Assembly (NCBI GenBank): GCA_020630975.1
Contig: JAHDID010000060.1
Span: forward strand, 1 to 34,732
DNA: 34,732 bases
Reading direction: 5' to 3'
DNA from: Verrucomicrobiota bacterium
Lineage (GTDB): Bacteria; Verrucomicrobiota; Verrucomicrobiia; Verrucomicrobiales; DEV007
Shown here piece by piece: positions 16,091 through 17,410 of this stretch. The notes below the pieces were generated by a model that saw nothing but the letters and a program-made list of their open reading frames with translations, did not search any database and was not told where the DNA came from. Each line of letters opens with the position of its first letter. The stretch's first letter is position 1. A program made the translations under genes and the position numbers.

Positions 16091-16492
16091 ATGAAAACTT
16101 TCCTCCTGTTCCTCCCTTTTTGGATTTTGTTCTTCATTTATCTATTCCAAGGTCTCTTTGGCGATAGGCACACGTGGTTCTTTGGAAGGTACTCTGGGGG
16201 AGCGTCAATTTCTGTCGGAGGGGGATCCGCTAATATCAAATGGGAGCGGTCTTTGGTAACGGCTCTGATGGATAAGCCAATTTACGAAAAGCAAAAAAGC
16301 CTCGAAACGCCGGTTGCGAGGTTTTTCAACAAAGCAGCGATCTTTCCATATTATTCTCCACCTCCCGGGCCACGTTCATTGAGATTACCGCTTTGGATCC
16401 CATTGCTCTTGGTGTTTCTATTATTGAGCTTCATCCGGATGCGCAAGCGCAAGCTGGTGGCAGGAACGGTTCAAGCGGCTCTTGAGGAATAG
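16091..16492 (+). CDS. Small two-helix membrane protein, unknown function
   Basis: The 133-residue protein has an N-terminal hydrophobic segment (FLLFLPFWILFFIYLFQGLF) and a C-terminal one (PLWIPLLLVFLLLSFI) followed by basic RMRKRK. Between them is a Gly/Ser-rich stretch and a hydrophilic loop of about 75 residues, probably outside the cytoplasm. No family is recognised. It is 30 bases downstream of the HEAT-like gene in the same direction, so they may be co-transcribed. Confidence 0.55.
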   Translation: MKTFLLFLPFWILFFIYLFQGLFGDRHTWFFGRYSGGASISVGGGSANIKWERSLVTALMDKPIYEKQKSLETPVARFFNKAAIFPYYSPPPGPRSLRLPLWIPLLLVFLLLSFIRMRKRKLVAGTVQAALEE

Positions 16493-16546: not shown

Positions 16547-16580
16547 TCTGTGCTTTTGGTATAGAAAACAATGGGATGCG

Positions 16581-16848
16581 CCAGCGAGTGGCGTTTCATC
16601 GTGGTGGGGTTGTCCTTCGGCCGATTGCTCTGCAGTCCACTCGCTGACGCTCGCCGCCACTTTTATGGATGGAACATGGATTGCATGGATTCTATCGAGC
16701 CTGGTGACTGGAATGTTTCTCTAGTATAAGAAAGCGGGAAGCATGTGGCGGCGAGCGTCAGCGAGTGACGTTTCATCGTGAGGGAGTAGGTGTGGCGGGT
16801 TGCGAATACAAGGAGTGGCCGATCCCTCTGCAGTCCACTCGCTGCCAC
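16581..16848. repeat. Two copies of a dispersed inverted-repeat element
   Basis: Copy 1 (about 16581-16660) has CCAGCGAGTGGCGTTTCATC at its left end and GCAGTCCACTCGCTGACGC near the right. Copy 2 (about 16744-16848) has GTCAGCGAGTGACGTTTCAT at the left and GCAGTCCACTCGCTGCCAC at the right. The ends of each copy are inverted relative to each other (CAGCGAGTG/CACTCGCTG). A related end, GTGGCGGCGAGCG followed by GCGAGTGGA, occurs at 26639-26667. No gene is seen in 16493-16876. Confidence 0.65.
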
Positions 16849-16876
16849 TTTTAGATAGCAGATTGCAGAATTTTGC

Positions 16877-17410
16877 CTATTCAGCAGCCGTCGGCGAGAT
16901 GCCTAGCTCTTTGAGCTTGGCGACTGTGTCAGCACCGGCTTTGCCTGCTTTCACGGCTTTGTCGATGGCTAGGATCTTGCCATCGGCTCCGATGTAAAAG
17001 GTCCAGCGCTGAGGGAATGGGCGCACGCCGCTGACGACGCCGAAGGCTTTGGCGGCATCTTTTTCTGGATCGCTGAGGATCGGGTAGTTTAGCTCCAGTT
17101 TCTTGGCAAATTTGGTGTTGGTCTCGACCGAGTCACAGCTGGCTGCGAAGTAGGCGATATCATAGTTGGCTAGCTCTGCGCCACTCTCACGGAGCGACTC
17201 ACACTGCTTGGTTCATCCTCCGGTGAAGGCCTTGGGGAACCAAGCGATCACAATCGGCTTTCCTTTGAGATCGGCTAAGGTGTAGGTCTGGCCATCGCTG
17301 CCGGTCAGTGAAAAATCTGGGGCATCGTCGCCGACTTGGAGCTGTGCTTTAGCAAACATAGGAGCTAGGAAAAGTAGAACGGCGAATGATACGCCTAAGG
17401 TCGATCTCAT
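16877..17410 (-). CDS. Secreted selenocysteine peroxiredoxin (TGA read as Sec)
   Basis: A conventional reading stops after 65 residues at a TGA (17213-17215). The same frame continues uninterrupted to TAG at 16877, giving a complete thioredoxin-fold peroxiredoxin of 177 residues if TGA is read as selenocysteine. Residues 1-22 are a signal peptide ending MFAKA. Then come VGDDAPDFSLTGSDG, IAWFPKAFTGG-U66-TKQC70, NYPILSDPEKDAAKAFGV and RWTFYIGADGKI. U66 falls exactly at the peroxidatic cysteine of the AhpC/TSA family, and C70 is a plausible resolving residue. It should reduce peroxides in the envelope. A SECIS-like hairpin follows the TGA. Peroxiredoxin is an established bacterial selenoprotein family. 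A nonsense mutation or sequencing error is possible but less likely. Confidence 0.88.
17180..17198 (-). promoter_or_regulatory. Bacterial SECIS-like hairpin
   Basis: On the minus strand GUCGCUC pairs with GAGUGGC (7 pairs, two of them G-U) around the loop CGUGA. The loop begins 21 bases after the UGA, inside the distance range for bacterial SECIS elements read by SelB. An A-G mismatch and two further pairs can extend the stem. Found by hand folding. Confidence 0.6.

What the first reader, a model, noticed from the sequence alone, without database searches (positions are those of the whole stretch)
16877..17410. Secreted peroxiredoxin with selenocysteine at the peroxidatic position
Seen: an in-frame TGA at 17213-17215 lies between AFTGG and TKQCESLRE. 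The frame stays open after it for 111 more codons that complete a peroxiredoxin, and the TGA is exactly where the family has its catalytic Cys. Seen by hand folding: a 7-bp hairpin with loop CGUGA starting 21 bases after UGA. Known: peroxiredoxin is one of the bacterial selenoprotein families, and bacterial SECIS elements lie just downstream of UGA. Inferred: the host decodes Sec and exports this enzyme. Automated annotation would truncate it at 65 residues and miss the gene. An exported Sec-containing peroxiredoxin is unusual because it must pass the Sec translocon before use.
Basis: partly seen in the sequence, partly recalled or inferred. Interest (0 to 1): 0.78.

Follow-up and report, generated by a model that had tools for sequence, protein, structure and literature searches.

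The report
Exported selenocysteine peroxiredoxin in Verrucomicrobiota
A gene that looks broken by a stop codon is almost certainly an intact, exported antioxidant enzyme that carries selenium in its active site; such enzymes were known in bacteria, so it is a well-supported new example rather than a new kind of thing.

Summary
The TGA sits at the peroxidatic position of a PrxQ/BCP-like AhpC/TSA protein. The host genome has tRNA-Sec (anticodon TCA), selA, selB and a SelD fused to an oxidoreductase. Of 92 distinct subfamily loci, 29 have TGA at this codon and 63 have Cys. All 29 TGA loci lie in genomes with selA, against 37 of 63 Cys loci. The 7-bp hairpin behind the TGA is kept by compensatory changes in TGA copies (97.5% of cells paired) and mostly lost in Cys copies. 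So this is very probably a UGA-decoded selenoprotein with a bacterial SECIS. A signal-peptide-like N-terminus is present in 86 of 89 complete members, so Sec and Cys forms alike look exported. Two details are less familiar: a Cys at +4 from Sec/Cys in all 92 loci, where PrxQ has its resolving Cys at +5; and at least 12 Sec/Cys changes on the best gene tree (6 forced by well-supported branches). Sec-containing Prx (TxxU) is a long-known selenoprotein family, so this is a new member, possibly an exported variant. Protein-level proof is missing.

The parts
16877..17410 (-). Complete gene of a probably exported PrxQ/BCP-like peroxiredoxin, 177 residues with UGA read as Sec at codon 66, stop TAG
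17345..17410 (-). Predicted signal peptide, residues 1-22 (MRSTLGVSFAVLLFLAPMFAKA / QL); cleavage site inferred by eye and a simple pattern
   Evidence: hydropathy heuristic, not SignalP
17213..17215 (-). In-frame TGA, Sec66, at the peroxidatic position (PxxxTxxU)
17201..17203 (-). Codon for Cys70 (TGT), +4 from Sec; proposed resolving Cys, present in 92 of 92 subfamily loci
17180..17198 (-). Bacterial SECIS-like hairpin: 7 bp, loop CGUGA at 17191-17187

Best explanation
This is a functional selenoprotein gene. SelB carrying Sec-tRNA(Sec) binds the hairpin that starts 15 nt after the UGA, and UGA at codon 66 is decoded as selenocysteine (supported by genomics, not yet by protein). The product has a signal peptide and is probably moved by the Sec system, unfolded, into the periplasm (inferred). 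There Sec66 reduces peroxides as the peroxidatic residue of a PrxQ/BCP-type peroxiredoxin (strong inference from alignment and fold). The selenenic acid is probably resolved by Cys70, four residues on in the same helix, giving a selenenylsulfide that a periplasmic thioredoxin-like protein reduces (inferred, untested).
For: Full Sec machinery in the same genome: tRNA-Sec 58.6 bits against a gathering score of 47, anticodon TCA; selA 522 bits, cut-off 268; selB 272.6 bits, 296.5 with its neighbouring stretch, cut-off 242.25; selD 301 bits, cut-off 125. 29 of 92 distinct subfamily loci, in Verrucomicrobiota, the class of a Blastopirellula relative, Acidobacteria and a proteobacterial single-cell genome, have TGA at this codon; the other 63 have Cys. 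selA is present in 29 of 29 TGA genomes and 37 of 63 Cys genomes, Fisher p 8.9e-6. Hairpin over 29 TGA sequences: 97.5% of cells paired, 4 of 7 pairs with changes on both sides (7 of 500 shuffles as high), 19 such cells and covariation score 0.349 (0 of 500 each), above every slid version. All five inner pairs form in 26 of 29 TGA loci and 3 of 63 Cys loci. Codons +7 to +9 are synonymously identical in every comparable pair of 18 TGA sequences (1.00) against a mean of 0.49 elsewhere. AlphaFold model pLDDT 89.4, best folds BCP/PrxQ/AhpE. Signal-like N-terminus in 28 of 28 complete TGA members.
Against: No protein or RNA data. Single-sequence folding of the hairpin is not significant. On the tree, independent pairs that differ in Sec/Cys differ in selA the same way in only about 1.8 of 6, with about 4.2 showing no difference and none the other way, so the selA association is not significant once relatedness is allowed for. 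Cys copies also pair more than a codon-shuffle null (42 pairs against a mean of 26 in 8 sequences, 0 of 5000 as high), so that null is too lenient. The signal peptide rests on a hydropathy heuristic with only two cytosolic controls (GcvP 0.48, GcvH -0.14). The resolving role of Cys70 and the reducing partner are not tested.
Confidence: 0.96

Rival explanations
1. The TGA is a true nonsense mutation or a sequencing error in a Cys peroxiredoxin, and the gene is dead or misread.
For: Table 11 gives only a 65-aa ORF; 63 of 92 subfamily loci have Cys there.
Against: The same codon is TGA in 28 other distinct loci from other assemblies and several phyla; the 111 codons downstream stay open and are conserved; the hairpin covaries; all 29 TGA genomes carry selA.
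Confidence: 0.02
2. UGA is read by another route, as a reassigned sense codon or by near-cognate suppression, giving Trp or Cys at position 66 with no selenium.
For: UGA read-through without SECIS is known in general (own knowledge).
Against: TGA ends 5 of the 16 frames of 250 codons or more in the window (not all 16 need be genes); a full Sec system is present; the homologous residue is Cys, not Trp, in 63 of 63 non-TGA loci.
Confidence: 0.01
3. It is a Sec peroxiredoxin, but the N-terminal hydrophobic stretch is an uncleaved membrane anchor, or the enzyme works like a 1-Cys peroxiredoxin without Cys70 as resolver.
For: Only composition supports cleavage; Cys70 lies one position away from the PrxQ resolving Cys.
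Against: An A-x-A box precedes the mature domain in the window protein, and 85 of 89 complete members have an AxA-like box by a loose pattern; Cys70 is present in 92 of 92.
Confidence: 0.2

Closest known systems
Bacterial selenoprotein family Peroxiredoxin (Prx), TxxU, COG1225/PF00578 (Sargasso Sea and GOS surveys; PMC1088965, PMC2398784, PMC9312934)
   Same: AhpC/TSA fold, PxxxTxxU with Sec at the peroxidatic position, bacterial SECIS just after the UGA, Cys homologues at the same site.
   Different: The passages I saw say nothing of a signal peptide or of the +4 Cys in this family; I could not see their alignments, so some of their sequences may well be this subfamily.
PrxQ/BCP atypical 2-Cys peroxiredoxin (e.g. 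C. glutamicum PrxQ Cys49/Cys54, PMC5811025)
   Same: Best fold and sequence matches are BCP/PrxQ-type proteins; two redox residues close together at the start of one helix.
   Different: Second Cys at +4 instead of +5; probably exported; below the NCBIfam cut-offs for BCP (88.5 of 140) and for the PrxQ model NF053650 (65.4 of 260).
PrxU (NCBIfam NF040737 peroxi_PrxU; Sec-Prx of Eubacterium acidaminophilum recalled as its type)
   Same: A peroxiredoxin family in which Sec at the peroxidatic position is known.
   Different: Scores 41.7 against a cut-off of 270 over a longer, 233-position model.
Prx-like thiol:disulfide oxidoreductase selenoproteins (UxxC)
   Same: AhpC/TSA domain with Sec; a likely member with WUPFC is in the same genome (L070).
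   Different: Sec lies in a thioredoxin-like UxxC motif, not in TxxU.

Membership tests
Bacterial selenoprotein (UGA-decoded) | In-frame UGA aligned with a catalytic Cys of homologues | tested here: met
   63 of 63 non-TGA subfamily loci have Cys at this codon
Bacterial selenoprotein (UGA-decoded) | SECIS stem-loop just downstream with a G in a small apical loop | tested here: met
   loop starts CGU in 29 of 29, CGUGA in 28 of 29, covarying stem; bSECISearch itself not run
Bacterial selenoprotein (UGA-decoded) | selA, selB, selC, selD in the host | tested here: met
Bacterial selenoprotein (UGA-decoded) | Sec shown in the protein | not testable with these tools
   needs 75Se labelling or mass spectrometry
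Peroxiredoxin selenoprotein (Prx, TxxU) | AhpC/TSA domain with PxxxTxxU | tested here: met
   P59-KAF-T63-GG-U66; columns P59, T63 and 66 invariant in 10 of 10 aligned
PrxQ/BCP | BCP-like fold and sequence | tested here: met
PrxQ/BCP | Resolving Cys at +5 from the peroxidatic Cys (in members that have one there) | tested here: not met
   Cys at +4 in 92 of 92 subfamily loci, at +5 in 12 of 12 more distant homologues; reference spacing from PMC5811025 (passages)
PrxQ/BCP (NCBIfam NF006960 equivalog) | Score over the curated cut-off of 140 | tested here: not met
   88.5 bits
NCBIfam PrxU (NF040737) | Score over the curated cut-off of 270 | tested here: not met
   41.7 bits
Exported protein | N-terminal signal peptide | tested here: inconclusive
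   Hydrophobic core in 86 of 89 complete members; no trained predictor and no experiment

The most novel reading that the evidence does not exclude
The gene belongs to an undescribed exported subfamily of PrxQ-like peroxiredoxins, spread over Planctomycetota, Verrucomicrobiota, Acidobacteriota and Pseudomonadota, in which the second redox Cys has moved from +5 to +4 and the peroxidatic residue has switched repeatedly between Sec and Cys. A Sec/Cys pair one helical turn apart (U-x3-C) would resolve by a local selenenylsulfide, and the subfamily would be a natural series for asking when a periplasmic enzyme keeps or gives up selenium.
Probability: 0.45. Interest if true: 0.55.

Novelty: new member of a known kind. 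Interest (0 to 1): 0.42.

Why it matters
Standard gene calling turns this enzyme into a 65-residue stub, so a probably exported antioxidant of several environmental phyla would be missed wherever the Sec form is used. The subfamily gives 29 Sec and 63 Cys versions of one enzyme in known genomic settings, with at least 6 switches forced by well-supported branches. That makes questions about the benefit of Sec over Cys outside the cytoplasm, and about the U-x3-C spacing, open to direct test.

Tried and rejected
Looked for an operon link with the glycine cleavage genes just upstream (GcvP, GcvH on the same strand): a tblastn of GcvP and of the 133-aa ORF downstream against 27 loci (L017-L025, L031-L048) matched only L031, the window itself, so no conserved neighbour was found (flanks were 3 kb or 1.5 kb at most, less where contigs end).

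Single-sequence folding energy was not informative. In a phylum-wide sample (387 genomes, host included) 4 matched at E 1e-26: the host and three others of 36-39% identity, which I did not examine further; so the subfamily seems rare in Verrucomicrobiota outside the host's family, though L018 (Verrucomicrobiales UBA12295, family not told) has it. In the class of G058, 69 of 198 genomes had a match at E 1e-30; I examined the best match in 68 of the 69 (the 69th, G061, is the genome of L022, already counted) and left three weaker second matches of 38-40% identity unexamined.

Rows dropped before counts: L026 (29% identical, set aside), L036 (taken as the same locus as L017: G034 and G056 give the same selA place), L092 and L110 (genomes of L019 and L020), and L049-L060 (31-38% identical, TGC at 66, Ala at 70, Cys at 71), set apart as other PrxQ proteins. 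In the first set Cys70 was the feature that I used to separate the close group, so its invariance there is partly by selection. L047, L046 and L150 were left out of the signal-peptide count because the contig ends within the gene. In one search my script took the nearest ATG and gave truncated N-termini for several loci; replace it. L048 (G014) is a divergent, probably frameshifted or misassembled copy and was kept in the counts. G439 was counted as selA-positive although its partial match (243.6 bits) is below the cut-off; without it Cys is 36 of 63. In one search two genus genomes (G003, G018) and those of other families in the order were not given to the selA search. One search aligned the window stretch with its own copy and adds nothing.

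Literature searches for an exported or periplasmic Sec-Prx or for a CXXXC peroxiredoxin gave nothing relevant in the listings, but the library holds open-licence papers only. Papers: passages seen by term search of PMC1794560, PMC1088965, PMC13188914, PMC4807772, PMC2398784, PMC9312934, PMC5811025; all others only as search listings.

Full report
WHAT IS THERE. The gene is on the minus strand of the window. It starts at ATG 17410, meets TGA at 17215-17213 (codon 66) and ends at TAG 16879-16877. With TGA read through, the product has 177 residues: a hydrophobic N-terminus (MRSTLGVSFAVLLFLAPMFAKA/QL) and an AhpC/TSA domain over residues 26-147 (Pfam E 5.8e-32). The sequence around the TGA is P59-K-A-F-T63-G-G-U66-T-K-Q-C70. 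It aligns with the peroxidatic loop of solved BCP/PrxQ-type proteins, with their peroxidatic Cys over residue 66. An AlphaFold model from an alignment of ten sequences has mean pLDDT 89.4, with residue 66 in the first turn of helix 64-75; its best PDB matches are Sulfolobus Bcp1, M. tuberculosis BcpB and other BCP/PrxQ/AhpE structures.

THE HOST CAN MAKE SELENOPROTEINS. The window is contig C84 of a 7.14-Mb assembly, 95.8% complete. One genome of its family (G034) is the genome of L017, recorded as a Verrucomicrobiia MAG, which places the host in Verrucomicrobiota. The same assembly holds tRNA-Sec (58.6 bits, gathering score 47, anticodon TCA), selA (522 bits, cut-off 268), selB (272.6 bits, 296.5 with its neighbouring stretch, cut-off 242.25) and selD (301 bits, cut-off 125). 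The selD frame gives 754 aa from its first start, with a pyridine nucleotide-disulphide oxidoreductase domain (residues 21-321, E 2.6e-34) in front of the AIRS domains and an HCGGCG motif. This fits the Ndh-SelD fusion with CxxC described in PMC2398784 (passages). Of 19 AhpC/TSA stretches listed in the genome, one other has an in-frame TGA, within YWUPFC behind what look by eye like three membrane segments (L070:1423-2184). The Sec system therefore probably serves at least two clients; a SECIS was not looked for in the second.

RELATIVES AND THE SEC/CYS PATTERN. Relatives came from three searches: genome contigs (10 relatives, 9 of them close), 56 genomes near and including the host and 198 genomes of the class of the Blastopirellula relative G058, of which 69 had a match at E 1e-30. 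After removing duplicates and the more distant homologues there are 92 distinct loci including the window. All 92 have Cys at position 70. At codon 66, 29 have TGA and 63 have TGC or TGT. The TGA loci are 12 in the host's genus (host included), L018 (Verrucomicrobiales UBA12295), 12 in the class of G058 (G058 included), three Acidobacteria and one proteobacterial single-cell genome. In the host's genus the form varies between species: 12 TGA, 5 Cys among the genomes with a member. selA is present in 29 of 29 TGA genomes and in 37 of 63 Cys genomes (Fisher p 8.9e-6). The Fisher test ignores relatedness; with independent pairs on the tree the trend has the same direction but is too thin to be significant (about 1.8 same, 0 opposite, 4.2 no difference, of 6). 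On the 92-row tree the fewest Sec/Cys changes are 12, of which 6 are forced by starred branches (shuffled labels need 24.8 on average). The tree was a quick one with many weak forks, and the direction of change cannot be read from it.

THE HAIRPIN. In the 29 TGA loci the 7-bp stem at +15 to +33 after the UGA is formed in 97.5% of cells. Four of seven pairs show changes on both sides (19 cells; such as C-G to U-A, G-C to A-U, and in L102 the closing C-G to G-C). The covariation score and the number of such cells exceed all 500 shuffles, the number of such pairs was reached by 7 of 500 and the number of further pair types by 2 of 500, and every slid version has a lower covariation score (18 sequences, where pair types were reached by 158 of 500). 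The loop starts CGU in 29 of 29 and reads CGUGA in 28 of 29. All five inner pairs form in 26 of 29 TGA loci but only 3 of 63 Cys loci, and the loop codon is CGT in 9 of 63 Cys loci. In 18 TGA sequences the Leu/Phe, Arg and Glu codons at +7, +8 and +9 are synonymously identical in every comparable pair (1.00), against a mean of 0.49 (sd 0.16) for codons outside the hairpin; in 8 Cys sequences the same three give 0.78, 0.24 and 0.55. Against a codon-shuffle null both sets exceed expectation (TGA 123 against 61; Cys 42 against 26; 0 of 5000 each), which shows that this null is lenient and that some Cys copies keep traces of the stem. Surveyed bacterial SECIS elements share a small apical loop with a G close behind the UGA (PMC1088965 passages); this hairpin fits. 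I could not run bSECISearch.

EXPORT. A 10-residue core of hydropathy 1.8 or more lies in the N-terminus of 86 of 89 members with a complete 5' end, including 28 of 28 TGA members (24 of 24 in the first set). GcvP and GcvH, the only controls, give 0.48 and -0.14. This is a heuristic, and the script took the best of several possible starts, but its consistency over several phyla makes export the natural reading. Export of Sec enzymes is not in itself rare (own knowledge: FdnG, [NiFeSe] hydrogenases).

THE SECOND REDOX RESIDUE. C. glutamicum PrxQ uses Cys49 and Cys54, five residues apart (PMC5811025 passages), and 12 of 12 more distant homologues from the host's order have the same +5 spacing (such as C-TKQA-C). 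In the subfamily the Cys is at +4 (U/C-x3-C) in 92 of 92. In the 68 loci this was not a selection criterion; in the first set it was the feature by which I separated the close group (47% identity or more) from the rest. Cys92 is not invariant.

KNOWN OR NEW. Sec-containing peroxiredoxin with TxxU is an established bacterial selenoprotein family: 43 sequences in the Sargasso Sea set and 253 in the GOS set (PMC1088965, PMC2398784; passages). The NCBIfam PrxU and BCP models do not claim this protein at their cut-offs. Searches for an exported Sec-Prx or a CXXXC Prx found nothing relevant in the held library. So it is a new member of a known kind, perhaps an undescribed exported variant; whether earlier surveys already contain this subfamily I could not see.

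VERDICT. What is shown: the frame, the position, the machinery, conservation, covariation. What is inferred: Sec in the protein, cleavage and export, peroxidase activity, the role of Cys70.

Noticed in passing
L070:1423-2184 (minus), G000:C101: Second likely selenoprotein of the same genome: AhpC/TSA domain with WUPFC behind an N-terminus that looks membrane-spanning by eye, one in-frame TGA.
   Followed up: partly
L028:1387-3651 (minus), G000:C77: selD is fused to an N-terminal pyridine nucleotide-disulphide oxidoreductase domain (Ndh-SelD type) with a CGGC motif.
   Followed up: yes
window 16578-16853: REP-like palindromic repeats between the end of the peroxiredoxin gene and the ORF at 16091-16492; 61 matches to a 96-bp piece were counted genome-wide (itself included), the search having scored 40 of 124 candidates.
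   Followed up: partly
L018:2483-2824: Just upstream of the Sec peroxiredoxin of UBA12295 lies another AhpC/TSA-like stretch with an in-frame TGA in DW*PFC: two neighbouring likely selenoprotein genes.
   Followed up: no
L048 (G014:C222): TGA-form copy with a long branch and a shortened frame, either decaying or misassembled.
   Followed up: no
host genus, genomes G001 G005 G009 G010 G015 G020 G022 G032: 8 of the 31 host-genus genomes searched (host included) gave no selA; none of the 8 showed the TGA form, two (G001, G015) have the Cys form. Some of these assemblies are incomplete.
   Followed up: partly
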